A stretch of DNA of 24,216 nt from an uncultured Bacteroidales bacterium (GTDB lineage Bacteria; Bacteroidota; Bacteroidia; Bacteroidales; UBA932), in assembly GCA_934725285.1 (NCBI GenBank), contig CAKVBK010000019.1:1-24216 (forward strand), in the 5' to 3' direction. Below are positions 3,044 to 19,724 of this stretch, one piece after another. The notes below the pieces were generated by a model. The model made no database searches. It saw only the letters and a list, made by a program, of their open reading frames with translations, and was not told the origin of the DNA. Each line of letters opens with the position of its first letter. Position 1 is the first letter of the stretch. A program made the position numbers and the translations under genes.

Positions 3044-6000
3044 ATGAAAAAGAATCGCACTTACAGAGTAAACGCCTTTCTCATGATGCTGTTGGCGGGA
3101 TCGCTGTCATTCAGCGTTGCCGCTGCCGCCTCTGAGTCCGGCCTACTGCCCGCGGCGGCCGCTCAGCAGCAGCCCGTCAAGGGAACGATCGTCGATGTCA
3201 ACGGCAACCCGATTCCGGGTGCAAGCGTGATGATCCCTGGCACAACGACAGGAACCGTCACCCTGGTTGACGGAACATTCTCACTCAACATCGCCGAAGG
3301 CACCACCGTCGAAGTCGGCTGCCTCGGCTACACTACCGTAAAGATCAACGCCAAGAACGGCATGAAGGTCGTCCTCAAGGAGGACAGCGAATATCTTGAC
3401 GAGGTTGTCGTTGTCGGTTTCGGAACGCAGAAGAAAGTCAATATGACCGGAGCTGTGGCAGCGGTTGACGTTGACAAGACATTCGGAAGCAAACCTATCA
3501 CGGATGTGTCCAAGGGTCTCCAAGGCGTTGTCCCTGGCCTCAACATCACGTACACGTCAAATGATATGGGCACGACTCCTACTATGAAGATTCGTGGAAC
3601 CGGCTCCATCAATGGCGACAACACCCCGCTGATTCTCCTCGATGGTGTGGAAGTGCCAGACCTGTCCTTCGTCAACCCTGACAACATCAAGAGCATATCC
3701 GTTCTCAAGGATGCCGCCTCAGCCTCCATCTACGGATCACGAGCCGCCTGGGGTGTCGTCCTCATCACTTCCAAGGATGGTTCAGCGGTAAAAGACAAGG
3801 TCTCCATCACATATTCCAACAATTTCTCCTGGAACCAGCCAATCGGTCTGCCTAAGTACATCACAGACAAGGAAGGCATCCTCGCTCAGCTTGAGGAAGG
3901 CATCCTCGCTCAAAAGAACACCGACGGAAAGGACATCGAGGCGTTCGGTATGTACTACAACAAAATGGCTCCGGGAATCACCAAATGGTTTGACAATTAC
4001 AGCGGCAACCTCGACAATCCTGTGTACACATACGGAGAGGATTGGGAGATCATCGGCGGCACACCATACTATTACAGGGTTTCCGACCCTAACAAGGAGA
4101 TGTTCAAAACATCATTCTCGCAGACTCATAATCTGAGCATAAACGGCAACACCGGAAAGACCAACTACAATATAGGCCTCGGCTACACCAAAAATGAGGG
4201 CAACCTCAAAGCCGCGAAGAAGAATGACATCGAGCGTTACAACGTCAACATTTCCACAAACAGCCAGATCAAGGATTGGCTCAACATCGGAACCAAGCTT
4301 ATGTACGTGGAAAAGGAATTCGAGTACCCTAACGGCTACGAGACCAGCAACGGCACTTCTAATATGCTTTATTATGTTATGCGTTTCCCTACATTCTTCC
4401 CGTTCGGCATCTCAGACGGCAGCAAGCTGCCTGACGGCACTTACGCAAGTGCGAAGGCCGCGACCGGAGAAGGCTTGTATTTCCGTCACGGAAACGGATA
4501 TCTGGCCAACAGGGATGTATGCTCGTCCAACGATCAGTATCTTTCCCTTGGCGGAAACATCAGAATCAACATCGCCCCGGGTCTGTCTTTCTACGGAGAC
4601 TACACACGCGGCCGCTACAACTATGAGAACAGGAGCATTCAGACTCCATTCTCTGTCGCCAACTGGTCATTCCCGTCAAAGTACACATTCCCGACCGATA
4701 ATATGAGCCGTGCGTTCGTCAGCAAAGTGATGAACACCTACAACGCCTACTTCGACTACATATTCAGCATCCGTGAATCCCACAACTTCGCCTTGAAGCT
4801 CGGTGCGAACGCTGAGGATTTCAAGTATGACAATCAGTCAATCTCTGTCAATGGTGTGATGTACCCTGACCTTCCTACCCTGAACCTTACCGAAAAGAAC
4901 AAGGAAGCGACAGTCAATGAAGCTCTCAGGCACAGGGCCACCGCCGGTTTCTTCGGAAGGATCAACTACAATTACAAAGAGAAATATCTTCTTGAACTGA
5001 ATGGACGTTACGACGGATCATCATCATTCCGTCCAGGGAAACAGTGGGCGTTCTTCTCTTCTGCTTCGGCCGGTTACAGAATCTCAGAGGAGAATTTCTG
5101 GCAGAACATCAAGCCTTATGTCCCTTCCCTGAAACTCAGAGGATCTTACGGCTCTGTCGGAAACCAGGCTCTTACCTCCTTCTATCCGTACATCCCTCTT
5201 ATGGCTTCCGAGACTGTCAACTGGATCGGCACCGACCTCAACAAGAAGACCTCGGCTGAGACTCCTGACGCCATCAATGCGGATATGACGTGGGAAAAGA
5301 TCCGCACATTGGATTTTGGATTTGACGCCGGATTCCTCAACAATGATCTGAACGTCACATTCGACTGGTATGTCAGAAGGAACATTGGTATGCTTGTCGC
5401 CGGAAACGAAATCATACGCTACGCTGGTATCGCCACCGCTCCTCTTGAGAACGGTGGTAACCTCAGGACAACGGGATGGGAGCTTCAGATTGACTACAAC
5501 CACGCTTTCAGCAAGGACTTCGCCGTCTACGGGACATTCACAATGGCTGATTCCCGTTCCGAAATCACAAAGTGGAACAACACGACCGGAGCTCTCCAGA
5601 GTTGGTATGAAGGCAAGCAACTTGGCGAAATCTGGGGATTCGAGACCGACAGGTACTTCAACACTTCCGATCTGAACTCAGACGGCACCCTTAAGGAAGG
5701 AATTCCTGACCAGTCGTATCTGCAGAACGGCTCGTTCCGTTTCGGCGCCGGCGACATCAAATACAAGGATCTGGACGGCAGTGGCAAGATAGACAGCGGC
5801 AAGGGAACAATTGACGATCACGGAGACCTCAAGCGTATCGGAAACGCCCTCCCAAGATATGAGTACTCACTCCGCCTTGGCGCGATGTTCAAAGGCTTCG
5901 ATTTCGAGATCCTCTTCCAGGGTGTAGGCAAACGTGATATGTGGACAAACTCCTCTCTCTTCATTCCTCACGCTGCAAGCGCCCAGATGAACATCTTCGA

Positions 6001-6412
6001 AAATCAGCTTGACTACTGGACAGAGGACAATCAGGACGCCAGATTCCCACGTCCTTACATCAACGCATCCCTCGGCTCACTTTCAGGACTTCCAGGAAAC
6101 TCCGGCATCAACAACTATGCGCCTCAGACCAAGTACCTCAACAATCTGGCCTACCTGAGAGTCAAGAACCTGACCTTCGGATACACGATTCCTCAGAACA
6201 TAACCAGAAAACTTTATGTAGAGAAACTCCGTGTTTACTTCAGCGCGCAGAACCTGCTTACATTCGACCACATTGACGGAATAATGGATCCAGAGGCTAC
6301 CGGCGGAACCACAGCTGTCAGCAAGTACAACAACGGTATCGACCTTAACTACGCTGGTCGCACAATGCCGTTCAACCGTCAGTGGAGCTGCGGTGTTCAA
6401 ATAACATTCTAA
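3044..6412 (+). CDS. SusC/RagA-type TonB-dependent outer-membrane transporter (pair 1)
   Basis: A 1122-residue outer-membrane importer that, with its SusD lid, binds and takes up oligosaccharides, peptides or other large nutrients using TonB energy. In order: signal peptide (about residues 1-40, with an Ala-rich cleavage zone), a carboxypeptidase-regulatory-like Ig-fold domain (about 44-115, starting VKGTIVDVNGNPIPGAS), the SusC hallmark DEVVVVGFGTQKK (about 119-131), a plug domain (about 135-250, with KIRGTGSI and YGSRAAWGVVLITS), and a long beta-barrel ending in a terminal Phe (GVQITF). No N-terminal STN signalling domain is present, so direct sigma/anti-sigma signalling is not expected. 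It is the first gene of an operon, with SusD starting 1 nt after its stop. The first residues nearly match those of the SusC at 11091-14312. The substrate cannot be inferred. Confidence 0.97.
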   Translation: MKKNRTYRVNAFLMMLLAGSLSFSVAAAASESGLLPAAAAQQQPVKGTIVDVNGNPIPGASVMIPGTTTGTVTLVDGTFSLNIAEGTTVEVGCLGYTTVKINAKNGMKVVLKEDSEYLDEVVVVGFGTQKKVNMTGAVAAVDVDKTFGSKPITDVSKGLQGVVPGLNITYTSNDMGTTPTMKIRGTGSINGDNTPLILLDGVEVPDLSFVNPDNIKSISVLKDAASASIYGSRAAWGVVLITSKDGSAVKDKVSITYSNNFSWNQPIGLPKYITDKEGILAQLEEGILAQKNTDGKDIEAFGMYYNKMAPGITKWFDNYSGNLDNPVYTYGEDWEIIGGTPYYYRVSDPNKEMFKTSFSQTHNLSINGNTGKTNYNIGLGYTKNEGNLKAAKKNDIERYNVNISTNSQIKDWLNIGTKLMYVEKEFEYPNGYETSNGTSNMLYYVMRFPTFFPFGISDGSKLPDGTYASAKAATGEGLYFRHGNGYLANRDVCSSNDQYLSLGGNIRINIAPGLSFYGDYTRGRYNYENRSIQTPFSVANWSFPSKYTFPTDNMSRAFVSKVMNTYNAYFDYIFSIRESHNFALKLGANAEDFKYDNQSISVNGVMYPDLPTLNLTEKNKEATVNEALRHRATAGFFGRINYNYKEKYLLELNGRYDGSSSFRPGKQWAFFSSASAGYRISEENFWQNIKPYVPSLKLRGSYGSVGNQALTSFYPYIPLMASETVNWIGTDLNKKTSAETPDAINADMTWEKIRTLDFGFDAGFLNNDLNVTFDWYVRRNIGMLVAGNEIIRYAGIATAPLENGGNLRTTGWELQIDYNHAFSKDFAVYGTFTMADSRSEITKWNNTTGALQSWYEGKQLGEIWGFETDRYFNTSDLNSDGTLKEGIPDQSYLQNGSFRFGAGDIKYKDLDGSGKIDSGKGTIDDHGDLKRIGNALPRYEYSLRLGAMFKGFDFEILFQGVGKRDMWTNSSLFIPHAASAQMNIFENQLDYWTEDNQDARFPRPYINASLGSLSGLPGNSGINNYAPQTKYLNNLAYLRVKNLTFGYTIPQNITRKLYVEKLRVYFSAQNLLTFDHIDGIMDPEATGGTTAVSKYNNGIDLNYAGRTMPFNRQWSCGVQITF
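3871..3912 (+). repeat. 24-nt-period imperfect tandem duplication inside SusC 1
   Basis: An identical 18-nt stretch (GGAAGGCATCCTCGCTCA) occurs at 3871-3888 and again at 3895-3912, exactly 24 nt apart, giving the in-frame residue repeat EGILAQLE / EGILAQKN. The reading frame is kept, so this looks like a small in-frame duplication just after the plug domain. Confidence 0.8.
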
Positions 6413-6413
6413 T

Positions 6414-8228
6414 ATGAAAATGATTGATTATATGAAAAAGACATTATACTCGTTCGCACTGATCGCCATTGCTGCGATAGGATTGAGCGGTTGCTCAGAC
6501 TACCTGAACAAAATGCCGCTTGACAGCAACTCAGATGCGACAAACTGGACTTCGGAAGCGTCCATCAAGACTTTCTCTTGGAAGTTCTACAGTTATATGA
6601 GCTCAATGAGCTACGGCAGTGGTTGGACAAAGGGACAATACCACTCTGAAGGACTTACCGATGATTATGCAAGCGCCACATTCACTGAATTCACAAAGAA
6701 TATTCCGAACTCCTCTAGTTCCTGGAACACTCCTTACGATCGAATCCGTGAGGCCAATATTCTTCTTAACCGAATCGATCAGGTTCCAGGGCTGACAGAG
6801 ACTGTCAGCAATCATTGGAAAGGAGTGGCAAGGTTCTTCCGCGCCCTGTATCATTTCGAGCTTGTAAAGACATACGGAGACGTTGTGTGGGTGGACAGCG
6901 AGGTTGACTTCACAAAAGAGGAGAACAGAATGCGCGCCCGTGACTCCAGAACATCGGTGATGGACAACGTTGTAGCCGACCTTGAGTTTGCAATGGACAA
7001 CTGCTACGATCCTTCCAAGGCAGACGACAATACTGTGAACAATATGGTTGCCGCCGCGTTGTTGTCAAGAGTCGCTCTCTATGAAGCCGCTTGGGAGAAA
7101 TACCATAAAGTTTCCGGCGGACATCCAGACCAGTTCTACGCAAAGGCTAAATCCGCCGCCGCCAAGGTCATTGACAGTGGAAAATATGAAGTCACCGACA
7201 ACTACAAAGGTATGTACACTTCACTTTCACTTACCGGCAGCAAAGAGGTTCTTCTTTACAAGATCTACACAATAGCCAACATCAACGGAGGCAAGGTTAC
7301 CCTTGGACACTCTCAATATGGCTACCTCGTAGCCTCAACCCCTACCTGGGGATTGACCAAGAGCGCTGTCGAGAATTATGCTATGTCAAATGGCCTTCCT
7401 GTACATATGGTGCCGTCTTATAATGACAAGACGATGGAAGGCGTGTTCGGCAACAGGGACAAGCGTCTGACCGAAACTGTCTGCAAGGATGTTCTTCCTG
7501 TCATCGGTATGACATATTCAGAAGGCATTAACTCAACAACCGGCTACTGGACTTGGAAATTTGTTGACTGGTCAAAGAAATCCGAATATGAAGGTAAAGG
7601 AACTTGGAATGGTCCTTCGAATGACACTGACGGTCCTATCTTCCAATACTCCGAGGTCCTTGAGAACTATGCCGAGGCTTGCGCCGAACTGGGCCAGATA
7701 ACCCAGGCCGACCTTGACAAGTCCGTCAACCTCCTTAGAACAAAGCACGGTGGAATTCCTGCCCTGACCTTGGTCGGGACAACCGGATGCTCTGTCAATG
7801 GAACAGCGATCACGAAAGACCCGAAGGACGCTTCCGAGAATGTCCTTCTTCAGGAACTCCGTCGTGACCGTCGCAGCGAGCTTATGGCAGACGGATTCCG
7901 AAACGCAGACCTTATGCGTTGGGCTCTTGGAAAGAATCTCGACACAAAACTCAATCCAGATGGTTATGTCGGCGCATCCAAAGAAGTCCTGGAGGCCTAC
8001 AGCAAGACCGTCAAACTGCCTGTTGTAGATAATAAGCAGACAACTTGGGATGATGTCGAGAAATCAAACTTCTTCGTGAACGGCTACAAGTCACCTTATA
8101 ACACAGCTGCCTCCACAGGCACCGGAGCCAAGGTTGACAGAGTCTGGGACGACAAGTACTATCTTGAGCCAATCCCAGCCGGTCAGAGACTTCTTGACGA
8201 GAACCTCTCGCAGAATCCTGGCTGGTAA
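6414..8228 (+). CDS. SusD/RagB family nutrient-binding lipoprotein (pair 1)
   Basis: A surface lipoprotein of the SusD/RagB family, which forms the hinged lid over its SusC partner. The full open frame is 604 residues. The lipobox is GLSGC, with the lipidated Cys at residue 27 of the longest frame. Three Met codons occur at the start (6414, 6420, 6432); the one at 6432 (MKKTLYSFALIA) gives the most typical 20-residue lipoprotein signal, so the true start may be there. Further on are the SusD features of a helical TPR-like body (for example ARFFRALYHFELVKTYGDV), ELRRDRRSELMADGFRNADLMRW and the C-terminal YLEPIPAGQ...NPGW ending. The 1-nt gap to SusC indicates one mRNA. The strong hairpin just downstream ends the operon. 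Ligand unknown. Confidence 0.96.
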   Translation: MKMIDYMKKTLYSFALIAIAAIGLSGCSDYLNKMPLDSNSDATNWTSEASIKTFSWKFYSYMSSMSYGSGWTKGQYHSEGLTDDYASATFTEFTKNIPNSSSSWNTPYDRIREANILLNRIDQVPGLTETVSNHWKGVARFFRALYHFELVKTYGDVVWVDSEVDFTKEENRMRARDSRTSVMDNVVADLEFAMDNCYDPSKADDNTVNNMVAAALLSRVALYEAAWEKYHKVSGGHPDQFYAKAKSAAAKVIDSGKYEVTDNYKGMYTSLSLTGSKEVLLYKIYTIANINGGKVTLGHSQYGYLVASTPTWGLTKSAVENYAMSNGLPVHMVPSYNDKTMEGVFGNRDKRLTETVCKDVLPVIGMTYSEGINSTTGYWTWKFVDWSKKSEYEGKGTWNGPSNDTDGPIFQYSEVLENYAEACAELGQITQADLDKSVNLLRTKHGGIPALTLVGTTGCSVNGTAITKDPKDASENVLLQELRRDRRSELMADGFRNADLMRWALGKNLDTKLNPDGYVGASKEVLEAYSKTVKLPVVDNKQTTWDDVEKSNFFVNGYKSPYNTAASTGTGAKVDRVWDDKYYLEPIPAGQRLLDENLSQNPGW

Positions 8229-8303: not shown

Positions 8304-8907
8304 TCAAATAAGTGACTTAATCCGTTCAGGTGACAGCCCGGCGACCTGAGCTATCTGTTCGACAGGCATGCCAAGCGCCAGCAAAGACTTCGCGACATCT
8401 GTCATAGCTGCATCGCGCCCCTCTGCTCTACCCTCGACTCTACCTTCGGCCTTTCCTTGCTCAACACCGTACTTAAAGCCATCTTAATGTCCAGTTCTAT
8501 AGCCTTGCTGCTTGGCGCCCTCTATGTAGGGGCGAATCTCTTTCTCTGTCAACATAACACTGAAATAGTTATCAATCTCGTTGTCGTCCAGGCCGCTTAC
8601 ACGCATCGCCTTCTCCAATCTGCCAAACCGCTCATCATCCTTAGACCTCGACTTGGCAAAGACAGCGAAATTCCCGAATATTCGGCACCATCCAGCAACG
8701 GGACTGTCATATTCATCGGTGTAGTGCATGATCCTCGGTAGCTCAAGGAGGTAGAACGAAATCTGATCGCCCAATGGCTCTGAGGTGTCAACTTCCTGAA
8801 TGCGGTAATGGTAGAGAATCTTGCCCCCGGTGAATCCGGATGGGCATCCTCGTAGTTCATGATGCAGATCACATTCTTTGGATATTCTTTGGCACAGCCG
8901 TAAGGTA
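8304..8907 (-). pseudogene. Decayed PD-(D/E)XK nuclease family transposase / Rpn-type gene (C-terminal part)
   Basis: The remnant of a gene of the Rpn/PDDEXK_2 transposase-like family. Read on the minus strand, from about 8907 one frame gives KNVICIMNYEDAHPDSPG. At the C run at 8824-8828 the frame shifts by one, and the next frame continues as GGKILYHYRIQEV, then GDQISFYLLELPRIMHYTDE and KSRSKDDERFGRLEKAMRVSG. An in-frame TAA at 8484-8486 interrupts it. After this the same frame reads on as DGFKYGVEQGKAEGRVEGR and ends with LAGMPVEQIA-type text (LALGMPVEQIAQVAGLS) at the TGA at 8304-8306. The charged Gly/Glu/Arg-rich tail is typical of the family. The N-terminal half with the nuclease residues is missing, and a stop closes the frame just upstream. 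It is therefore non-functional, with at least one frameshift, one nonsense change and an N-terminal truncation. Confidence 0.8.
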
Positions 8908-9165
8908 ATTATCTTTGAATTAACATATCGATGAATATGGGTGACAGATGGAATGGACGACATTTTTAGACTTAAGTGTCGTCCATAACCAACATAAGGA
9001 GTGTTTCGATGACAATTTCCGGCGAAAATGTCGTTCAACCTCTCATATGTCTGCCACCATTGACAGGAGGCCTGTTTCATGCACGAAGATCATGGCGAAT
9101 CAAGAGTCGTACTCCAGAAGTAGTTTTCCTATACCAAAATAAGCCGCACTTGTTGGCCTCTCCAC
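8908..9165. other. Unassigned intergenic stretch upstream of the pseudogene
   Basis: No protein family is recognised in any frame. The open stretches on both strands are short, composition-driven and without recognisable motifs. It may be the lost N-terminal end of the neighbouring pseudogene plus other scrambled insertion debris. It contains the inverted repeat at 8953-8986 and runs up to the terminator of the SusC/SusD pair 2 operon. Confidence 0.5.
8953..8986. repeat. Perfect 10-bp inverted repeat with 14-nt loop
   Basis: ATGGACGACA at 8953-8962 and TGTCGTCCAT at 8977-8986 are exact reverse complements separated by 14 nt containing five T. It is not placed after any intact gene, so it is not an obvious terminator. 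It could be an element end, an operator or a leftover hairpin of a mobile element. Confidence 0.75.
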
Positions 9166-9219: not shown

Positions 9220-11073
9220 TTATTGCTGGTCGGAATCCCACCAGACGTTGATTGTCCAGGCATCTTCAGCGGCGTTCCACTGATCCAATGACGTGTCGGC
9301 TCCCGGAACCTGTTCTCCAATTGCACTCAAGTTCTTGGAGTTGTAGTTCAGCTCGTGTGAGCACTGAATCCAGCGACGGAACTGCTTGCCGTCAGGAATA
9401 GCCTGTGTCGCCTTTACGACTTGTGAATGATATGCCGGGATTCCCCATCCGAGGAAATATTCCGGGTTGAAGTCGTAACGACGCATATCATTCCAGATCT
9501 CTACCGAGAAATGAAGAGCGATACGCTTCTGAGTCAGAATCTTGCCAAGAGTAAGATCACCGGAAGTTCCTATACCGTTTGCAAGGAAGTTGTCCATTTC
9601 TCCTTGGCTCATAGGCCTGAAAGAAGGGCAATCCGCAAGATTCTGGTCACCGCTGACCCAAGACTGGAGAGACACATTCATCTGTTCCATACTTGCTTTG
9701 ATTCCTTCCTTATAAGCTTCATACGCTCCAGATTTGTCGCCCTTGTTGAAAAGAACCTCGGCCTTGATGAAGCAAGCCTCTGAATATGTTCCGATATAGG
9801 TCGGAGAAGACACTCTCGTATAAAAAGAGCCAGACTCTTTAGATTCATCGTATTTATTGTTTCTTCTATAAAGAAGGTCTGATGCGGCCGCATAACCCTT
9901 TGATGTGCTGGTACACTCGACATAAACCGTATCTCCCAGTCTTGATTGCTCTTCAGAATCAATCCACCATCCGGATTTCTTACCGCCATAGTTGGCTCTG
10001 AGCGGACCGCCTTGGAAATTAGGACAGGCATCTGATGTCATGTCAACACCAAGAGAGCGTCTCCAATCGCCATCCCATTTAATCTCTTTTACCGTCTTGT
10101 CTGATTTCTTTGACAGCACCCAAGGAATGATTCTGTCAGCGCGAGGATCCTCTACACCATAACCAGCGAAATTGGTAAGGTTGTCATAGAGCATCTTCGT
10201 CACCATATAACCGCCATTCATTCCACAGACAGAGTATAACGGAGAGTAATCAACCGGCTCGTCCCAACCAAGATTGTCGTGCGTCGCGCTGTTGTCATCA
10301 GTGTGCCATACAACTGTATTGTCAGAATTGCTCTGCGGTCCTTTGGCAAGAGCCGCGAGTATCGCATCAGCATCGTATTTACCCTCGCTGTAGCTTCCAG
10401 CCTGTTTTTTAGAGAGCTTCACACAGTAGCGCGCCTTTAGCAAGTTGCCAAGCTTGATCCACTTGTCGACATCACCATTGTTCCAGGAATCGCCTTCCGA
10501 CAAAGCAGGAAGAGCTGAGCCCTGCGGCTTTGCAAGAAGTTCCAGTCCCTCATCAATGTCTTTCAGGCATCCGAGATAGATGGTCTTTCCATTGTCATAT
10601 TCAGGAAGGGCATACTGGCCGCAAGCCTGAGTGTATGGCATTTCTCCATAAATGTCTGTCATCAGCATAAAGCCATAGGCATTGATGATTTTGGCGGCTC
10701 CCGCATAGTGCCATGCCTCTGCGTCGATAGCTTTCTGGTACATATCGTCCACGTTGCAGGCAGCGCCGCAGAACCACCACTGGTAAGGAGTCGTCACAAC
10801 ACTTGATGTCGGATACCACAAAGACATATTCCAGTATGTGCCACCTCCGTAATATCTTGTCCAGTCCCCCATCGACATACTTGAACGCCATGCCGCGAAC
10901 TGAGTCGCACTGTTTGTGTAAAACTCAATATGAGCCAAACGGGATTGATAAGGGGCCGTGTCACTTGTCGGATTCTCCGGATCCTCATTGACGTTCAACC
11001 AGCTATCGCACGAAGAGAGTGTCAACCCCACAAGGCCGACGCCACTCAATAATATGGTTTTTAATATTTTCAT
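9220..11073 (-). CDS. SusD/RagB family lipoprotein, SusD-like_2 type (pair 2)
   Basis: A 617-residue surface lipoprotein partner of the SusC encoded just upstream. The signal peptide ends in the lipobox LTLSSC (Cys22). The mature part begins DSWLNVNEDPENPT, the typical opening of the SusD-like_2 (SusD and RagB outer-membrane lipoprotein) branch. It continues with a helical TPR-like body (AKIINAYGFMLMTDIYGEMPY, split here as AKIINAYGFMLM and TDIYGEMPY; KWIKLGNLLKARY; GTYSEACFIKAEVLFNKGD) and the late ILTQKRIALHFSVEIWNDMRRY block. It ends in an aromatic/acidic WWDSDQQ. The start lies 17 nt after the SusC stop, so the pair is one operon. This branch differs from that of the SusD at 6414-8228, so the two pairs are not simple recent duplicates. 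The ligand is unknown. Confidence 0.95.
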   Translation of the reverse strand: MKILKTILLSGVGLVGLTLSSCDSWLNVNEDPENPTSDTAPYQSRLAHIEFYTNSATQFAAWRSSMSMGDWTRYYGGGTYWNMSLWYPTSSVVTTPYQWWFCGAACNVDDMYQKAIDAEAWHYAGAAKIINAYGFMLMTDIYGEMPYTQACGQYALPEYDNGKTIYLGCLKDIDEGLELLAKPQGSALPALSEGDSWNNGDVDKWIKLGNLLKARYCVKLSKKQAGSYSEGKYDADAILAALAKGPQSNSDNTVVWHTDDNSATHDNLGWDEPVDYSPLYSVCGMNGGYMVTKMLYDNLTNFAGYGVEDPRADRIIPWVLSKKSDKTVKEIKWDGDWRRSLGVDMTSDACPNFQGGPLRANYGGKKSGWWIDSEEQSRLGDTVYVECTSTSKGYAAASDLLYRRNNKYDESKESGSFYTRVSSPTYIGTYSEACFIKAEVLFNKGDKSGAYEAYKEGIKASMEQMNVSLQSWVSGDQNLADCPSFRPMSQGEMDNFLANGIGTSGDLTLGKILTQKRIALHFSVEIWNDMRRYDFNPEYFLGWGIPAYHSQVVKATQAIPDGKQFRRWIQCSHELNYNSKNLSAIGEQVPGADTSLDQWNAAEDAWTINVWWDSDQQ

Positions 11074-11090
11074 AATTGTCTGAATGAATA

Positions 11091-14000
11091 TTAGAATGTC
11101 AGATTAACGCCAAATGTCATTCCTGCGGTTGATGGCACTCCGCAGTAGTCAAATCCTACGGATGAGGATCCACCGACACCCGCTCCGGCAGCGGCAACCT
11201 CAGGGTCACCATTGTAGTTTGTTATCAGAAGCAGATTGTTGGCAGAGGCCGAAACAGATGCCCTCTTGATAAAACCAACCTTCTTTAAAATGTTCTGAGG
11301 CAATTCATAATTGATGGAGATCGAACGAAGTCTCAACAAGTTCACTTTCGTGATGTAATTGGCGGCCTCGACGGTATAATAGTTCGTGTAGTAGTTCTTT
11401 ATGATATTGTAGCCACTCATCTCGTTTCCGTTGAAGACATAAGTCTTGTCCGCTTCCCAAGTATTGCTGACCGGCTCGCCCGCACTGTTGACACCGGTTA
11501 TTGTCAATGCCTGGTTCCTGATGTCTCCGGAGAACTTGCTGGTTCCGCTGACATCCATAGCGTACTGCGTACCGTTCACAACATCACCTCCAACTCTGAA
11601 TTCCCACAGCATATTGAATGACAGGTTTTTCCATGTCAATGTATTATTAAGGCCACCGGTGAATTTCGGCTCACGGTTTCCGACCTCGAACAATGTCTTG
11701 TTATCGTATGTCGGCATTCCATTCTTGTCCAGAATGACGTTTCCATCATCGTCTCTATACCATTTCTTACCGGCAATGGCCATAAAGTTCCCGTTGTTGA
11801 ACGACGCCGCCTGCATGCCCGCATACTGAACATCCGTAACGTACATCACGTCAAGTCCTTGCGGAAGATTGCCGATTGTACCGCGGTTTCCTGCCATATT
11901 CAGGCCGACATCCCATCTGAAGTCCCTTGTCTCGACCGGAATTCCGGAAACTGTAAGTTCCATACCTTTATTATAGACATTACCGGCATTCATAGAGAAG
12001 AAGATATACCCTGTTGACTGAGGACCGCGAGGGCTGAGGATCTGGTCATACGAATCGTTTGTATAATAAGCGTAATCAAAGCGCAGCCTGTTGTTCAAGA
12101 AACTCATCTCAAGACCTATTTCCGTTGATTTCGTCATCTCAGGCCTCAAGATAGGATTGCCCTTTGACCAAGTGTTGCCGACTCCGACCTTACCGCCGAG
12201 ATAGACACCTGTAGGCCAAAGTGTAGTGGCAGTCTCATAAGGATTCGTGTCCTTGCCCACCTTCGCCCAAGACACACGGAGTTTACCATAAGACAAGGCC
12301 GTGTTCTTTGGAAGCAATTCTGTAAACACAAATGAACCGCTTACCGAAGGGTAAAAATAAGAACGATTCTCCTTCGGAAGAGTCGAAGTCCAGTCATTAC
12401 GTCCGGTGACGGTCAGGAAAAGCATGTTCTTCCATGAAGCCCGGAACTCTCCGAAGATACCGGCAAGCCTTTTCAGCGAAGCGGCGTGCTTGAACTGTTT
12501 GTTGTTTGTTGTCGTGTTGGCATAAGAGAAGAAGTCCGGGACCGAGAAGTTCCAAGCCATCTTGTAGTTGCTGTCTGTCTTGGTGTCATCCAGCTGCGCT
12601 CCCAAAAGCAGATTCAGATCGAAATCTCCGAACTGTTTGTTCATATTCGAGATAAAGTTGTGGGAAAGGTATCTGAAATGCGATGTATTGTCACTCATCA
12701 TACCTTTCTGCCAAACCTGTTTGATGGCTCCGTTGGCAGCTATTCTGTTGGATGCCGTCTGAGTATAGGAGTCCACACCTGCCTTGTACTGAACATACCA
12801 CCACTTCGCGATGTCAGCCTTGACACTGACGCTGCCGGTGAAACGCTCGACATTGTCGTACATGTGGTTCTTGTTCACAAGCCAATAAGGGTTGTCCCTC
12901 TCCTCCCAAGGGTCCAGCCTGTTGTCAAACATACGATACCGTGTGCCATCATCGTTCAGATAGTGCTTCATGTCATCAAACGGAGACCAGTTATACACAG
13001 CATAAAGAGCACCGGTACCTGAAGAGCCGTAAAGCGCGGCGCCTGTCAGCGTCCTGTCCGTGTGAGCGTCAGAATATGCGGCGCTGGCGTTGAACGTGAA
13101 TATTCCCACCTTTTGCTCTCCGTTGAATCTGAATGAATATTTGGTATAACCCGTATTCGGGACGATACCATCCTGATCATAGTAGGAGCCAGAAAGGTAG
13201 AAATTGCTGTTCTTCGTACCTCCAGAAATGCTTAGGCTTTCGTCCAGGATCGTGCCGCCCTGAAAGAAATCACCGATGTTATCGTAAGTCTTGGCATCAG
13301 ATCTTTCTCCCCATGAGGTGTAAGCAAAGTCATTGAACGTCGTACCTGTGTACTTCTTTGAAGCATCATAATTATCCTGCATGTAACCTCTTGTATACTC
13401 CTTTTGAACCTTAGGAAGATTGGTCGCCCAAGAAGTGGAGAGTTTGGAATTAAGATTAACTTCAATCCGGCCGTCCTTGCCTTTCTTTGTGGTGATGAGA
13501 ACCACACCGTTCGCGGCGCGTGATCCGTAAAGCGCGGAAGCCGCGGGACCTTTAAGGATCGACATGCTTTCGATGTCCTCCGGATTTATGTCCATCACAC
13601 GGTTGGATGAGGTTGTGGCTGATCTCATGCTTCCATCAAAGGCTGAGTTGCCGACAACATTCGTTGAGTTGTCGTAGATGATTCCGTCCACGACAAACAA
13701 CGGTTGGTTATCTTTGCCTTCAGAGCCGGAAGTTCCACCACGAAGGATGATCTGAGCTCCGGATCCGGCCGCGCCTGAGGACTGGGTGATGTTCACACCG
13801 GCGATCTTGCCGGACAGAGAGCTGATCGCGTTGGCGGTCTTGTTCTTCATGAGCTCGGAGGCGTTGATGTCCTCGACGGCGTAACCGAGAGACTTCCTTT
13901 CCCTCTTGATACCGAGGGCGGTCACAACAGACTCGTCAAGAAGCTCGTTGTCTTCGGAGATCGTGACATTGAGCGGCAGGCCTTCGTAGACAACCTCAAC

Positions 14001-14312
14001 CGTCTTGTAACCGATGCTTGAGAATACAATCGTGGCGCCAGGTGCCACATTTGAAAGAGTAAAGGTTCCATCCGGATTGGTCAGAGTACCATTCGAGGTG
14101 CCTTTCACCATTACACCGATGCCGACCGTACCTTGACCGGAAGCGTCGATGACTTTTCCGGTTACAGTGCGGTTCTGTTGCTGAGAGGCGGCTGCCTCTG
14201 ACAACGAACCAGCCTTGGACTCAGATGCGAGCGAGGTCGTTCCGGCCAGGAAAGAACCTGCCAGCATCATCGCGAGAAAGGCGTTCGTCCTGTAAGTGCG
14301 ATTTTTTTTCAT
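11091..14312 (-). CDS. SusC/RagA-type TonB-dependent outer-membrane transporter (pair 2)
   Basis: A 1073-residue SusC importer. In order: signal peptide (about residues 1-30, MKKNRTYRTNAFLAMMLAGS), a Gln-rich linker, a carboxypeptidase-regulatory-like domain (about 48-120, VTGKVIDASGQGTVGIGV), the SusC box DESVVTALGIKRERKSLGYA (about 126-145), a plug with ILRGGTS and MSILKGPAASALYGSRAANG, then the beta-barrel ending GVNLTF with the terminal Phe. No STN domain is present. The box type (VVTALGIKRE) differs from that of the other SusC (VVVGFGTQKK), placing them in different SusC subgroups although their first 13 residues differ at only one position. It is the first gene of the minus-strand operon; codons 2-4 contain an A8 run. 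The substrate is not predictable. Confidence 0.97.
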   Translation of the reverse strand: MKKNRTYRTNAFLAMMLAGSFLAGTTSLASESKAGSLSEAAASQQQNRTVTGKVIDASGQGTVGIGVMVKGTSNGTLTNPDGTFTLSNVAPGATIVFSSIGYKTVEVVYEGLPLNVTISEDNELLDESVVTALGIKRERKSLGYAVEDINASELMKNKTANAISSLSGKIAGVNITQSSGAAGSGAQIILRGGTSGSEGKDNQPLFVVDGIIYDNSTNVVGNSAFDGSMRSATTSSNRVMDINPEDIESMSILKGPAASALYGSRAANGVVLITTKKGKDGRIEVNLNSKLSTSWATNLPKVQKEYTRGYMQDNYDASKKYTGTTFNDFAYTSWGERSDAKTYDNIGDFFQGGTILDESLSISGGTKNSNFYLSGSYYDQDGIVPNTGYTKYSFRFNGEQKVGIFTFNASAAYSDAHTDRTLTGAALYGSSGTGALYAVYNWSPFDDMKHYLNDDGTRYRMFDNRLDPWEERDNPYWLVNKNHMYDNVERFTGSVSVKADIAKWWYVQYKAGVDSYTQTASNRIAANGAIKQVWQKGMMSDNTSHFRYLSHNFISNMNKQFGDFDLNLLLGAQLDDTKTDSNYKMAWNFSVPDFFSYANTTTNNKQFKHAASLKRLAGIFGEFRASWKNMLFLTVTGRNDWTSTLPKENRSYFYPSVSGSFVFTELLPKNTALSYGKLRVSWAKVGKDTNPYETATTLWPTGVYLGGKVGVGNTWSKGNPILRPEMTKSTEIGLEMSFLNNRLRFDYAYYTNDSYDQILSPRGPQSTGYIFFSMNAGNVYNKGMELTVSGIPVETRDFRWDVGLNMAGNRGTIGNLPQGLDVMYVTDVQYAGMQAASFNNGNFMAIAGKKWYRDDDGNVILDKNGMPTYDNKTLFEVGNREPKFTGGLNNTLTWKNLSFNMLWEFRVGGDVVNGTQYAMDVSGTSKFSGDIRNQALTITGVNSAGEPVSNTWEADKTYVFNGNEMSGYNIIKNYYTNYYTVEAANYITKVNLLRLRSISINYELPQNILKKVGFIKRASVSASANNLLLITNYNGDPEVAAAGAGVGGSSSVGFDYCGVPSTAGMTFGVNLTF

Positions 14313-14582: not shown

Positions 14583-17500
14583 ATGGAACTGAAAGTCCGC
14601 TTACTGTATTTGCCGGTGATTAATTTCGCGATGCAGCAGAACCACGTCCCGGTAATCCGGGAAGTCAAGCTGTGCAACACATCAGAGACAGCCATCGAAG
14701 ACATTTCCATTGAGATCTCCTTCGAGCCGGACTTCGGTGCCGTTTACAAGACGCACATAGAAAGCATATCTTCTGGATGCGAAGAGACGGTCTCACCTGT
14801 GCCGATTGTGTTTTCCACACGATTTTTCGCAAACTTGACGGAACGCATCAGCGGGAGCATACATCTGGCGGTATCATCCGGCGACATGGAACTGTTCAGC
14901 GAAACTTATCCCATTTCTGTTCTCACATATAATGAATGGTGCGGCACTCAGATCCTTCCCGAGATTCTCGCCGCTTTCTCTGTACCCAATCACCCGGAAA
15001 TACCGTCCTTGACAAGAAGGGCCGCTGAAATACTCGGGGACTGGACTGGATCGCCTTCATTGGACGAATATCAGCAGCGTGATCCCAACAGGGTGAAACT
15101 CCAGATGGCAGCCGTGTACGAAGCCATCGCCGAGAAAGACATCATCTACAGCGCGCCGCCGGCAAGTTTCGAGAAGACCGGACAGAAGATCCGGCCGGTG
15201 GATGAGGTCATCGGCAAAAGATTGGGGACATGCCTGGACATGACAATGCTGTACGTCAGCTGCCTTGAATCCATAGGCCTCAATCCGATCGCGGTTCTGA
15301 CGCCCGGCCACTCCATGGCAGGGTGCTGGCTCATAAAGGATTCCTTTCCCGACAGTGTGAACGACGACCCTTCGATGCTCACCAAAAGATCCGCCGCGGG
15401 AATCAACGAGATCCTGCTTGTCGAGACAACATGTATGAACGCCGGATGCCATGCTTCATTCGACAAAGCATGCCAGTCAGCCGACAACACGCTCGTTTCC
15501 TCCGGTGATGTCACATTCATTGACATTCATCGTTCCAGAATCTCACAGATCAGGCCTCTTCCGCTCAGGGCCCATAACGGTGACGGATTCGATGTCGAGG
15601 AGGACCCTATGGGCCGAAGGTGCAAGGCCCCGGAAAACCTGACAATAACCGACATCCATAATGAAACCAAGACAGCGATCGGCAAACTCATGGTGTGGGA
15701 GAGGAACCTTCTGGATCTCACTTTGAGAAACAACCTTCTGAACACAAGGGCCACGAAAAATACCCTGCCGATAATCTCCACCAACATCGACAAGCTGGAG
15801 GATTCTTTGGCGGACAATCAGGATTTCAGACTCCTTCCTATGCCGCAGGACTGGAACGGAAAACTGCTTGACGGGAAACTTTACCAGACCATCAACGCCG
15901 AGGATCCGCTGTTCAAAGTTGTGGAGGAAGAGCTTTCGCTCCACCGTCTCCATACTTACCTTGATGATATTTCCTTAAAACTAGGACTGACACATTTGTA
16001 CAGGACTTCAAGGACTGCGCTTGAAGAGAACGGAGCGAACACTCTCTACCTCGCTCTTGGTTTGTTGAAATGGTACGAGACGCCGGCCAGCGTGAAAGAG
16101 ATCTATGCTCCGATCCTCCTGATGCCTGTCGAGTTGGTGAGAAAATCAGCGGCTACTGGCTATTTGCTCAGAAGACGTGGCGAGGATACCATGCTCAACA
16201 TAACCCTTCTGGAGTTTCTACGCCAGGAATTCAGCATCACGATAAACGGTCTCGATCCTATTCCAGTGGATGCCAAGGGCGTGGACGTGCCACAGGTGCT
16301 CAACATAATCCGCAAGGGAATAATGGAACAGCCACGCTGGGACGTGGTCGAGCAGGCCGTAATCGGCAATTTTTCATTCAGCAAGTTCATAATGTGGAAT
16401 GACATACACAACAATCAGGAGGAAATATGCGGCGGCAAGATCGTTTCCAGCCTTGTGTCCGGAATGATTGATGAGAGCCTGAGCGAGACGATTCCTGAAG
16501 AGAGCGACCTGGATGAAAAATTCAAGGCAGGAGACATCAAGCTGCCTATCAGCGCGGACTCATCACAATTGGAAGCCATCAACGCCGCGATGGAAGGAAG
16601 GAGTTTCATCCTTCACGGCCCTCCTGGAACAGGCAAGTCCCAAACGATCACGAACATAATAGCAAACGCCATTTACAACGGGAAGAAAGTCCTTTTCGTG
16701 GCAGAGAAAATGGCGGCCCTGGAAGTCGTGCAGAACAGGCTTGAAGCCATCGGGATCGGTCCCTTCTGTCTGGAACTTCATTCCAACAAGACAAAGAAAA
16801 CAGCTGTTATCGAACAACTTAACAGAGTGACAGAGGTGATCCGGAAAGAATCCGGGAAGGAATATGCCACCGAGGCCAGAAGCATCAACGCCGTGCGCAA
16901 GGAGATGAACGCCTACGTCAGTGCGCTGCACAGACCCCGCGCCCTGGGATGGTCGCTGTACGACTGCTTCTCAGGCTACTATGCCATAGATGAAGAATGC
17001 CCTGCCATCAAGTTTCAGATTCCGAAAATGTTCAGGGTGACAGCTGAAGAGATTTCCTATGCTCAATCTCTCATTCCGGAATTCATCACGGCATGCGGGA
17101 TTGTAGGAAACCCTGCGGGCCATCCGCTTCTTGGAATATCGATTACCGAATATCCGGCAGACATCGACAAGGCGTTCAAAGGTCTTGATGAGCTTGGCGC
17201 ATGCTGCGGGAAGCTGTCACCTCTGACGCTAAAGGTAATGACATGCCTTTTCAACGCCCAGAACGATTCATTGAGCCTCAAAAATCTCAAAGCCTTGTCG
17301 GAAACAGCCAGGGCGATACTCTCTTCAATGAATATGTACGCAGAAATCCTGTCCCTGAGCGACGAGGGCAGCATCAGCGATGTCGAGGACGCTTGCAGGC
17401 ACGGAGAGAAACGTGATGCGGCCAAAGACGCCATCCTTCGGAAATATGACGGAAGCATCCTCTCACTGGACACTGCCGTTTTCGACAGGGAGTGGCGCAT

Positions 17501-19724
17501 GTCTGAGGCGAAAAGCTTCATACCGAGGTACTTCTCGCGGAATAAACTGCTGAGGATTCTCCGGACATATTCAAGGAAAAGGGTGAAGCCTTCCCCGAAA
17601 TCAGTTCTTCCGTTGTTGGGGAACATCGCCGAATACCAGGCCGAGCAAGCCTTTCTTGATGAGAAGGCATCGTCTGACAAGTTTCTTGAGGAGATATTCA
17701 AAAAAGATAATTGCGATTGGAACGCCATCGCCGGGAACTGTGGCAGAGCGAGAGATATGTACGCTTCCGCTGAAAGTTTTGCCGACAAGAACTCCGGCAT
17801 CACCGACGCGAGGGAAACATTGGCAGGGCTGTTCGCTGCTGACGCCGCCGGGTTCATAAGGCGCAATGAAAAGGTCCTCAGAGAGTTTGTCGAAGCCTTT
17901 GACTCGATGGAAACATCTCTGCGCTCGGCGCGGGAGGTGTTCGCGTCGGATGTGGTGGATGATTCAACATGCGGGTGGCTTGCCGCCACGAGGGACAAAT
18001 GCGCGCTATGGATAAGCGGAAAGGCGGCACTGCGAAACTGGATGTTGTACAACATAGCCAAAGCAAAACTGGACAAGGCAGGCTTTCCTGAGGTTGCCCG
18101 CCAGGTCGAGTCAGGAGCCATTCCGGCCAAAGCCGTTCCAGACGCGTTCAAAAAGGGACTGTACAAAACGTATGCGGAATATATCATTTCACATAAACGT
18201 GACCTCCGCATTTTCCACGGCCTGATGTTCGAGGAAAAGATTATGCGCTTCCGCAGTCTATGCAAGGATTTCGAGCGCCTGACACGCAAGGAGATATTCG
18301 AGAAACTGGCATCGAATCTTCCTGACATCCAACAGGAAGCTTCCCAAAATCCAGAGATCGGCATTCTCCAAAAGAACCTCAAGAACAGATGCCGTGGACT
18401 CTCTCTGAGGAAATTCTTTGACATGATTCCGAACCTTTTGCCACGGCTGTGCCCATGCATGCTGATGAGTCCTATCTCCGTGGCGCAATATCTTGATGTC
18501 AAGAGGGATAAGTTCGACCTCGTGATCTTTGACGAGTCATCCCAGATGCCGACTTGCGAGGCAGTCGGGGCTATCGCCAGAGGCAAAAGCATAATAGTCG
18601 TCGGAGACCCCAAGCAGATGCCTCCGACCAACTTCTTCACAATGAAGACATTCGACGAGGACAATCCCGAAGTCGAGGATCTGGAGAGCATCCTGGACGA
18701 CTGCTTGGCACTCTCCCTCCCGTCGAAATACCTCAGGTGGCACTACCGCAGCAAACACGAGAGCCTTATCGCATTCAGCAACTGCAAGTTCTACGGCAAC
18801 AAGCTTTTCACATTCCCATCGACAGATGACCTGACAACCAGAATCATCCACCAGCACGTGGAAGGTGTCTACGAAAGGGGCGGCAACAGGCAGAACCGGG
18901 CTGAGGCCGAAGCAGTCATAGCAGAGATAAAGGCTCGTCTCAAAGATCCGGCACTCTCCAGAATGAGCATCGGTGTGGTCACGTTCAACAATAGACAACA
19001 ATCTCTGATTGAGGACATGCTGACAGAATTGTTCACCGCTTGCCCGTCATTGGAGAAGACCGCGATGTCTTGCAAGGAGCCGATATTCGTGAAGAACCTT
19101 GAGAACGTTCAAGGTGACGAGCGTGATGTCATCCTGTTTTCCGTGGGCTACGGTCAAGACAGGAACGGCAAGGTGCTGCTGAATTTCGGACCACTTAACC
19201 GCGAAGGTGGAGAAAGGAGGCTTAACGTCGCTGTGTCCCGTGCCAGGTACGAGATGAAGGTTTTCTCCACCCTGATGTCGGATCAGATAGACTTGCGCCG
19301 CTCGTCGGCCGAGGGAGTCGCATGCCTCAAATCATTTCTTGAATATGCCGAGAAAGGACGGTCCACACTTCTGTACAGCTCGGCCTCCTCTTCAAAGCCA
19401 GCCGATGGGTTCGTGGAGGAAGTGGCCTCAGAGCTCAGGAAATCAGGGGTTGACGTCAGGACCAATGTCGGCTGCTCTGGCTACCGGGTAGACATAGGTG
19501 TTGTCAATCCGGGACACAACTCGGACTACATTCTCGGAATCCTGTGCGATGGCTATGGTTACTATGCATCCAAATCCGCCAGAAACCGCGAGATCATCCA
19601 GACAGGCATCCTTGAGTCCCTCGGATGGAAAATAACAAGAGTCTGGTCCACGGAATGGTGGAACGACAAGCATGAGGCACTGAGAAGGTTGACCGGCGAG
19701 ATCCAGGCCGCAATCACCTCTTGA
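14583..19724 (+). CDS. DUF4011-helicase-Vsr (Hhe-type) putative antiphage protein with transglutaminase-like domain
   Basis: A 1713-residue multidomain protein. Residues 1-105 look like a beta-rich Ig-like region. About 115-335 is a transglutaminase/protease-like domain with a possible triad of Cys217 (GTCLD), His243 (PGHSM) and Glu281 (LLVETT). DUF4011 begins near 368 (RNLLDLTLRNNLLNTR at 374-389). The SF1 helicase core has Walker A GPPGTGKS (679-686), a long mostly helical insert (about 750-1280), Walker B DLVIFDESSQ (Asp1317, Glu1318), GDPKQMPPT (1341-1349), WHYRS (1386-1390) and RLNVAVSRAR (1546-1555). The C-terminus (about 1590-1713) resembles the Vsr/MTES_1575 nuclease, with YRVDIGV (Asp1637) and CDGYGYY...GWKITRVWSTEWW. 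This order fits the Hhe class of predicted single-gene defence systems acting on foreign DNA. No partner gene is present. The ATG at 14583 is preferred over an in-frame TTG 6 nt earlier. The end overlaps the convergent serine dehydratase gene by 11 bp. Confidence 0.9.
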   Translation: MELKVRLLYLPVINFAMQQNHVPVIREVKLCNTSETAIEDISIEISFEPDFGAVYKTHIESISSGCEETVSPVPIVFSTRFFANLTERISGSIHLAVSSGDMELFSETYPISVLTYNEWCGTQILPEILAAFSVPNHPEIPSLTRRAAEILGDWTGSPSLDEYQQRDPNRVKLQMAAVYEAIAEKDIIYSAPPASFEKTGQKIRPVDEVIGKRLGTCLDMTMLYVSCLESIGLNPIAVLTPGHSMAGCWLIKDSFPDSVNDDPSMLTKRSAAGINEILLVETTCMNAGCHASFDKACQSADNTLVSSGDVTFIDIHRSRISQIRPLPLRAHNGDGFDVEEDPMGRRCKAPENLTITDIHNETKTAIGKLMVWERNLLDLTLRNNLLNTRATKNTLPIISTNIDKLEDSLADNQDFRLLPMPQDWNGKLLDGKLYQTINAEDPLFKVVEEELSLHRLHTYLDDISLKLGLTHLYRTSRTALEENGANTLYLALGLLKWYETPASVKEIYAPILLMPVELVRKSAATGYLLRRRGEDTMLNITLLEFLRQEFSITINGLDPIPVDAKGVDVPQVLNIIRKGIMEQPRWDVVEQAVIGNFSFSKFIMWNDIHNNQEEICGGKIVSSLVSGMIDESLSETIPEESDLDEKFKAGDIKLPISADSSQLEAINAAMEGRSFILHGPPGTGKSQTITNIIANAIYNGKKVLFVAEKMAALEVVQNRLEAIGIGPFCLELHSNKTKKTAVIEQLNRVTEVIRKESGKEYATEARSINAVRKEMNAYVSALHRPRALGWSLYDCFSGYYAIDEECPAIKFQIPKMFRVTAEEISYAQSLIPEFITACGIVGNPAGHPLLGISITEYPADIDKAFKGLDELGACCGKLSPLTLKVMTCLFNAQNDSLSLKNLKALSETARAILSSMNMYAEILSLSDEGSISDVEDACRHGEKRDAAKDAILRKYDGSILSLDTAVFDREWRMSEAKSFIPRYFSRNKLLRILRTYSRKRVKPSPKSVLPLLGNIAEYQAEQAFLDEKASSDKFLEEIFKKDNCDWNAIAGNCGRARDMYASAESFADKNSGITDARETLAGLFAADAAGFIRRNEKVLREFVEAFDSMETSLRSAREVFASDVVDDSTCGWLAATRDKCALWISGKAALRNWMLYNIAKAKLDKAGFPEVARQVESGAIPAKAVPDAFKKGLYKTYAEYIISHKRDLRIFHGLMFEEKIMRFRSLCKDFERLTRKEIFEKLASNLPDIQQEASQNPEIGILQKNLKNRCRGLSLRKFFDMIPNLLPRLCPCMLMSPISVAQYLDVKRDKFDLVIFDESSQMPTCEAVGAIARGKSIIVVGDPKQMPPTNFFTMKTFDEDNPEVEDLESILDDCLALSLPSKYLRWHYRSKHESLIAFSNCKFYGNKLFTFPSTDDLTTRIIHQHVEGVYERGGNRQNRAEAEAVIAEIKARLKDPALSRMSIGVVTFNNRQQSLIEDMLTELFTACPSLEKTAMSCKEPIFVKNLENVQGDERDVILFSVGYGQDRNGKVLLNFGPLNREGGERRLNVAVSRARYEMKVFSTLMSDQIDLRRSSAEGVACLKSFLEYAEKGRSTLLYSSASSSKPADGFVEEVASELRKSGVDVRTNVGCSGYRVDIGVVNPGHNSDYILGILCDGYGYYASKSARNREIIQTGILESLGWKITRVWSTEWWNDKHEALRRLTGEIQAAITS

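What the first reader, a model, noticed from the sequence alone, without database searches (positions are those of the whole stretch)
14583..19724. Single-gene Hhe-type (DUF4011-helicase-Vsr) defence candidate with an N-terminal transglutaminase-like domain
One 1713-residue protein joins a beta-rich N-terminus, a transglutaminase-like domain with a Cys217/His243/Glu281 triad, DUF4011, an SF1 helicase with all main motifs intact (GPPGTGKS, DESSQ, GDPKQ, SRAR) and a Vsr/MTES_1575-like nuclease end. The DUF4011-helicase-Vsr order is that of the Hhe class of predicted antiphage genes (recalled from the literature). The papain-fold domain at the front is little discussed and may be a protease, a peptide-binding module or a switch.
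Basis: partly seen in the sequence, partly recalled or inferred. Interest (0 to 1): 0.72.

Follow-up and report, generated by a model that had tools for sequence, protein, structure and literature searches.

The report
ProA-family anti-phage helicase with protease-like domain
The gene is a real, patchily distributed gut-bacterial gene of an already named anti-phage protein family (ProA) that joins a protease-like front end, a DNA helicase and a DNA-cutting end; the family is known, but what its well-preserved protease-like site does is not.

Summary
Window 14583-19724 (+) encodes one intact 1713-aa protein: an Ig-like N-terminus (1-114), a transglutaminase/PNGase-type papain fold (about 120-323), DUF4011, an SF1 helicase and an MTES_1575 (Vsr-like) nuclease domain. 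AlphaFold2 of residues 1-370 is confident (pLDDT 91). Cys217/His243/Glu281 occur in 120, 119 and 120 of 121 aligned sequences, window included, and in four Pseudomonadota relatives.

The family label needs correcting: not Hhe (777 bits, cut-off 2000) but NCBIfam 'anti-phage protein ProA' (1987 bits, cut-off 1500). A transglutaminase-SF1 helicase-Vsr fusion, with protein cleavage proposed, was printed in 2013 (PMC3710099). So this is a new member of a known kind.

Two peculiarities: the window's clade lacks the C-terminal DUF3320 that most listed relatives carry, and the window alone has Asn1668 where all 198 other aligned sequences with a residue have Asp, so its nuclease may be weakened.

The gene is patchy (7 of 199 and 28 of 99 genomes), which argues against a housekeeping role. 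The 7 other window ORFs scanned show no defence match, and type I methylase genes are not enriched near homologues. Anti-phage activity of this copy is inferred from its family.

The parts
14583..19724 (+). ProA-family gene, 1713 aa, single ORF; divergent from the upstream SusC gene, convergent with the downstream serine dehydratase gene (11-base tail-to-tail overlap)
   Evidence: NF058533, 1987 bits, cut-off 1500
14583..14924 (+). N-terminal Ig-like beta-sandwich, residues 1-114
14940..15551 (+). Transglutaminase/PNGase-type papain-fold domain, residues 120-323
15231..15233 (+). Cys217, candidate nucleophile
   Evidence: 120 of 121 aligned sequences, window included (1 gap); invariant in the 67 rows of A1
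15309..15311 (+). His243
   Evidence: 119 of 121 (1 Arg, 1 gap); invariant in A1
15423..15425 (+). Glu281, candidate third residue of the triad (Asp in L072)
   Evidence: 120 of 121 (1 gap)
15705..16220 (+). DUF4011, residues 375-546
   Evidence: PF13195 2e-46
16557..16790 (+). SF1 helicase RecA1 region (AAA_11 659-736), Walker A GPPGTGKS at 16617-16640
   Evidence: conserved
18531..18545 (+). Walker B DESSQ, residues 1317-1321
18714..19265 (+). SF1 helicase RecA2 region (AAA_12 1378-1561)
   Evidence: PF13087 1.7e-16
19410..19700 (+). MTES_1575 (Vsr-like) nuclease domain, residues 1610-1706
   Evidence: PF18741 1.8e-28; all 35 rows of A4 hit MTES_1575, 20 of 35 hit DUF559 and 17 of 35 hit RAP at E<=0.1
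19584..19586 (+). Asn1668 (codon AAC); Asp in all 198 other aligned sequences with a residue at this column (2 gaps of 201); possible loss of nuclease function

Best explanation
The gene encodes a one-protein anti-phage system of the ProA family. Most likely mechanism (inferred): the SF1 helicase, with DUF4011, engages invading or abnormal DNA and uses ATP to switch the protein on; the C-terminal Vsr-like nuclease cuts that DNA; the N-terminal papain-fold Cys-His-Glu site acts as a peptidase or amidase that is a second effector or a switch. Shown here: the protein, its folds, conservation of the papain-fold triad and helicase motifs in the family, patchy distribution, and plasmid carriage of relatives. 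Not shown: phage resistance by this copy, what is sensed, and the reaction and substrate of the papain-fold site. In this copy the nuclease may be weakened (Asn1668), and DUF3320, whose winged-helix part PMC3710099 proposes to recognise DNA, is missing.
For: NCBIfam ProA equivalog 1987 bits over residues 14-1711, cut-off 1500. PADLOC candidate family PDC-S37 at 1134 bits. Triad in 120/119/120 of 121 aligned sequences and in all 4 Pseudomonadota plasmid relatives aligned (33-36% identical). The fold is transglutaminase-like with pLDDT 91. Blocks over residues 121-330 (0.62-0.76 mean commonest-residue frequency) are about as conserved as those over 361-570 (0.57-0.85), against 0.26-0.46 for 811-1200. 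Patchy: 28 of 99 genomes over cut-off in a sample of the genus of L011; 7 of 199 at E<=1e-150 in a sample of the family of L008; both samples contain their known carrier at the centre. L008 (58-59% identical) has the gene after a type I restriction gene (REase_I 973 bits) and a gene matching candidate family PDC-S02 (226 bits). Of five plasmid regions viewed, three have genes of types often seen in defence islands (judged by recall) within about 6 kb: ThiF and WYL (L117), multiubiquitin and exonuclease (L119), exonuclease and YhaN (L120).
Against: No PADLOC hit in the 7 other window ORFs scanned, of 12 listed; neighbours are SusC/SusD pairs, serine dehydratase, DUF4886 and Hsp70. Type I methylase genes are not enriched near homologues: 1 of 43 loci, about 0.5 expected. 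Of the five plasmid regions, L116 has no defence neighbours apart from a reverse transcriptase and L118 carries no annotation. In P. aeruginosa a DUF4011 gene is a core flanking gene found in every isolate (PMC10250203, passages read; I did not test which DUF4011 family it is). The window's own residues 1-370 miss Transglut_core. Asn1668 may inactivate the nuclease. L064 lacks the papain-fold domain, so it is not indispensable.
Confidence: 0.6

Rival explanations
1. The papain-fold domain is not an enzyme but a peptide- or protein-binding sensor or scaffold; the helicase-nuclease does the work alone, as in family members without the domain.
For: L064 has DUF4011-helicase-nuclease with no papain-fold match upstream, and the PDC-S37 model aligns only from residue 368. 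Transglutaminase-like folds also serve as binding modules (recalled).
Against: Cys, His and Glu are kept in at least 119 of 121 aligned sequences and across phyla; the Asp at the Glu position in L072 is chemically conservative, as expected for a catalytic acid.
Confidence: 0.3
2. The protein is a chromosomal DNA repair or genome-maintenance helicase-nuclease rather than a defence gene.
For: No PADLOC hit in the 7 window neighbours scanned; no methylase enrichment; in one Bacteroides clade it sits beside rpsA; a DUF4011 gene is core in P. aeruginosa (PMC10250203).
Against: No match at E<=1e-150 in 192 of 199 family-level genomes, many probably incomplete; no match over cut-off in 71 of 99 of the Bacteroides sample, at least four of which have partial or split copies (G014, G029, G080, G093); relatives on mobilizable and conjugative plasmids; NCBIfam names the family anti-phage.
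Confidence: 0.2
3. This copy is decaying: it lacks DUF3320 and carries Asn1668 in the nuclease, so it may be non-functional or act only through helicase and papain-fold domain.
For: Asn1668 is unique among the 199 aligned sequences with a residue there; no convincing DUF3320 remnant in the window.
Against: The frame is open over 1713 codons, and P0002-P0004 (91-83% identical) have 1712-1715 residues. On the tree DUF3320 was lost in at least two separate clades (one member of the window clade, P0005, is cut at its front), and a 1718-aa Acinetobacter plasmid protein also ends without it (length-based).
Confidence: 0.25

Closest known systems
Anti-phage protein ProA (NCBIfam NF058533)
   Same: Match above the curated cut-off, papain-fold front included
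   Different: The match stops at model position 1707 of 1903; the DUF3320 end is missing
HEPN-transglutaminase-SF1 helicase-Vsr-wHTH giant proteins (MTES_1575 group, PMC3710099)
   Same: Transglutaminase-like domain, SF1 helicase and MTES_1575 nuclease in one chain
   Different: No HEPN domain found by Pfam and no DUF3320/wHTH end in the window protein
PDC-S37 (PADLOC candidate)
   Same: DUF4011-helicase-nuclease part, 1134 bits
   Different: The model aligns from residue 368 on, so it does not cover the papain-fold domain
Hhe (NF042953 / PDLC02194)
   Same: DUF4011 name, helicase and Vsr-like end; partial match, best stretch residues 1026-1706
   Different: Far below the curated cut-off (777 of 2000 bits)
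Yeast PNGase and transglutaminases
   Same: Papain-type core fold over about residues 120-323 (PNGase)
   Different: Glu in place of the usual Asp as third triad residue (usual residue recalled); no sequence-level PDB match
Stand-alone homologue of ProA residues about 15-320 (about 400 aa) in Bacteroides
   Same: Same module by profile comparison (probability 98.1) with aligned Cys and His; an LETT motif like the window's VETT is seen by eye only
   Different: No helicase or nuclease; N-terminal hydrophobic segment

Membership tests
ProA (NCBIfam NF058533) | Score above curated cut-off of 1500 bits | tested here: met
   1987.3 bits, residues 14-1711
ProA (NCBIfam NF058533) | Whole model covered, DUF3320 end included | tested here: not met
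   Model positions 1-1707 of 1903; no convincing DUF3320 remnant. The curated cut-off, which decides membership, is still passed.
ProA (NCBIfam NF058533) | Anti-phage activity | not testable with these tools
   No experiment; the source paper was not found in searches
Hhe (NCBIfam NF042953) | Score above curated cut-off of 2000 bits | tested here: not met
   777.1 bits
PDC-S37 (PADLOC) | Match to the PADLOC model | tested here: inconclusive
   1133.9 bits over residues 368-1711; no cut-off given
Papain fold, transglutaminase-like superfamily | Papain-type fold around C217/H243 | tested here: met
   Model and PNGase/3kd4 matches over 120-323; predicted, not solved
Papain fold, transglutaminase-like superfamily | Conserved Cys-His-acid triad | tested here: met
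   120/119/120 of 121
Papain fold, transglutaminase-like superfamily | Pfam Transglut_core match of the window's own sequence | tested here: inconclusive
   No hit for the window row; 37 of 67 aligned members hit at E<=0.1
HEPN-TGase-helicase-Vsr-wHTH group (PMC3710099) | HEPN domain | tested here: not met
   No HEPN among 17 Pfam families at E<=0.1; a diverged HEPN could be missed
HEPN-TGase-helicase-Vsr-wHTH group (PMC3710099) | C-terminal wHTH (DUF3320) | tested here: not met
   No DUF3320 hit; the protein ends after the nuclease domain
MTES_1575 nuclease | Domain match above gathering score | tested here: met
   98.9 bits, cut-off 38.2
MTES_1575 nuclease | Residues near-invariant in these homologues all present | tested here: not met
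   Asp1637 and Asp1656 present; position 1668 is Asn, Asp in all 198 others with a residue

The most novel reading that the evidence does not exclude
ProA is a helicase-gated cysteine peptidase: DNA engagement by the SF1/DUF4011 core licenses a papain-fold Cys-His-Glu enzyme that cleaves phage or host proteins, so that the main effector of some members is proteolysis and not DNA cleavage. The window's branch, with DUF3320 missing and Asn1668 in the window's nuclease, would be a natural case that leans on the peptidase.
Probability: 0.2. Interest if true: 0.65.

Novelty: new member of a known kind. Interest (0 to 1): 0.33.

Why it matters
The family and the defence guess are known. What is open is the role of the papain-fold site, which the alignments here show is kept with few exceptions in relatives from several phyla. 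Members that lack DUF3320 (window clade, a roughly 1550-aa clade, the Acinetobacter plasmid protein) or the papain-fold domain (L064) are natural deletion sets that would make the role of each module directly testable.

Tried and rejected
Hhe membership: rejected on score. DUF3320 remnant downstream or in the 198-aa ORF at 8484-9080: the weak tblastn hits (best E 0.003 with 44 query segments) were judged chance after blastp (E 0.021, 22% over 100 columns). Split-off DUF3320 gene behind L058 and L066: no match at E<=1e-3. Defence-island enrichment by type I methylase (PF02384): not found. Empty-site comparison: the window's flanking genes lie on different contigs in the nearest genomes or are missing there, so it was dropped. 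PDB sequence search with profiles of residues 1-370 (best E 1.4) and 352-656 (best E 0.41): nothing significant; the nuclease profile gave RAP-domain proteins (2.2e-4) and 3hrl, 'endonuclease-like' (0.005). Foldseek's transglutaminase 2 rows have low TM-scores (about 0.2) and either large rmsd over many columns or about 121 columns, perhaps the beta-barrel part, so I rest the papain fold. Viral contigs: no match to the exact peptide patterns used; 1 of 50,697 phage records matches (MT836269.1, 11.4 kb, 47% identical, unannotated), not followed. The neighbour scan used 136 of 143 immediate neighbours; the 7 longest were dropped for size, and its output lists only the 25 commonest families. DUF4011 structure: not obtained. 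Source paper for the name ProA: not found in ten searches of the open-licence library. Papers seen: passages of PMC3710099 and PMC10250203, a term search without hits in PMC13092281; all others as search listings only.

Full report
Observation. The frame at 14583-19724 (+) is intact and encodes 1713 residues. Pfam finds DUF4011, SF1 helicase domains and the MTES_1575 nuclease domain. The gene stands alone: the SusC gene upstream is divergent and the serine dehydratase gene downstream is convergent, overlapping tail to tail by 11 bases.

Family. NCBIfam NF058533, 'anti-phage protein ProA', scores 1987 bits against a cut-off of 1500; Hhe scores 777 against 2000. PADLOC ranks PDC-S37 (1134 bits) above Hhe (547). 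In a spread of 40 of 295 plasmid records, 16 rows are annotated Hhe and match only residues 1128-1700 (one from 1150). So the protein is ProA, not Hhe. The publication behind the name ProA was not found in the held library. The fusion of a transglutaminase-like peptidase with SF1 helicase and Vsr nuclease (there with HEPN and wHTH domains), and a guess that it cleaves proteins, is in PMC3710099 (passages read).

What is particular here. Most of the 120 best-listed homologues, of 7922 found, run to about 1900-1950 residues and end in DUF3320. Among 201 aligned sequences, 19 (window included) have fewer than 100 residues beyond the window's end, some of them cut by contig ends. The window clade (5 tips, support 1.0) and a clade of about 1550 residues (9 tips, support 1.0) are separate on a FastTree tree, each among relatives with long C-terminal extensions, so the domain was lost at least twice if it was not regained. 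An Acinetobacter plasmid protein of 1718 residues also ends there. The window has no convincing DUF3320 remnant. In the nuclease domain, Asp1637 and Asp1656 are present but position 1668 is Asn (codon AAC); all 198 other aligned sequences with a residue there have Asp, the nearest relative P0002 included. Whether Asp1668 is catalytic was not tested.

Distribution and setting. In a sample of 99 genomes of the genus of L011 (Bacteroides), 28 pass the ProA cut-off; at least four more hold partial or split copies. In 199 genomes of the family of L008, 7 have a match at E<=1e-150, one of them partial, and the six genomes nearest by a GSCFA protein are not among the seven. Both samples include the carrier they were centred on, and the genomes may be incomplete. 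PADLOC found nothing in the 7 other window ORFs scanned, of 12. The nearest genomic relative, L008 (58% identical), has a type I restriction gene and a PDC-S02-like gene directly upstream. As a general test, 94 type I methylase matches (fragments counted apart) were found in 43 genomes; only L008 shows one within the fetched flanks, judged by a methylase motif search of flank ORFs. With 20 kb of flank and a mean genome of 3.8 Mb, about 0.5 would be expected by chance (my arithmetic). So patchiness supports an accessory role, while general defence-island enrichment is not shown. tblastn finds relatives on 295 of 72,556 plasmid records at E<=1e-50, 53 of them with at least 80% of the query covered in one place. 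Of five plasmid regions viewed, three have defence-type genes nearby (L117, L119, L120), one is unannotated (L118) and one looks chromosomal (L116).

Mechanism. Most likely the helicase/DUF4011 core senses or translocates on invading DNA, the Vsr-like domain cuts it, and the papain-fold site provides a peptidase or amidase activity as second effector or switch. Only folds, conservation and distribution are shown; the steps are inferred. One locus (L064) lacks the papain-fold domain, with no match upstream at E<=0.01, so helicase plus nuclease can exist without it.

Side observations. A reverse transcriptase of retron type (best PADLOC model RT_III-A in the 4 scanned) lies directly behind the ProA gene in opposite orientation in 10 of 80 loci from Bacteroides, Dysgonomonas, Tannerella and Apibacter, 9 of them within 51 bases and one at 349. 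Pairwise identities of RT and ProA over 11 loci (the 10 plus L077, where the RT is 2 kb away; 55 pairs, not independent) correlate at r = 0.98, while neighbours differ among the loci read. The ten lie in one 16-tip part of the tree (support 0.46). No retron RNA family of Rfam reached its threshold in five such loci. In 12 of 80 loci, all titled Prevotella or Prevotellaceae, a radical SAM gene lies directly upstream. A stand-alone homologue of ProA residues about 15-320 occurs in at least 54 of 99 Bacteroides genomes (my hand count of the listed rows, a truncated list; some rows have stops inside the match).

Verdict. A real, well-described member of a known anti-phage family, with a clade-level loss of DUF3320 and a window-only change in the nuclease.

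Noticed in passing
L007:15792-16859, L011:16003-17133, L013:6052-7218, L020:8474-9559, L027:15780-16862 and five more loci: A reverse transcriptase of retron type, with a hydrophobic N-terminus in those read, sits tail to tail behind the ProA gene in 10 of 80 loci, and RT and ProA diverge in step (r = 0.98 over 11 loci); possibly a two-gene unit. None in the window.
   Followed up: partly
L055:9163-9942 and 11 other Prevotella-type loci: A 259-267-aa radical SAM protein directly upstream, same strand, in 12 of 80 loci (L055's own Pfam score is just below the gathering cut-off); PMC10250203 also reports a radical SAM gene by the DUF4011 gene of P. aeruginosa.
   Followed up: partly
L081:7789-8982 (-): Stand-alone homologue of the Ig plus papain-fold module with an N-terminal hydrophobic segment; such matches are listed for at least 54 of 99 Bacteroides genomes.
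   Followed up: partly
window 8484-9080 (-): 198-aa ORF with a weak PDDEXK_2 match (2.3e-4, below cut-off) between two oppositely oriented SusC/SusD pairs; perhaps a transposase-like remnant.
   Followed up: no
window 3044-8228 (+) and 9220-14312 (-): Two SusC/SusD pairs pointing towards each other, typical glycan-uptake genes of Bacteroidales.
   Followed up: no
L116 (NZ_OY725931.1): A record called 'plasmid 29' of Bacteroides finegoldii carries rpsA, ftsK, trxB and glutamine synthetase genes and looks like a chromosomal contig.
   Followed up: no
phage record MT836269.1: An 11.4-kb unannotated 'Bacteriophage sp.' record encodes a ProA homologue (47% identical) over nearly half its length; perhaps a bacterial contig misnamed.
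   Followed up: no
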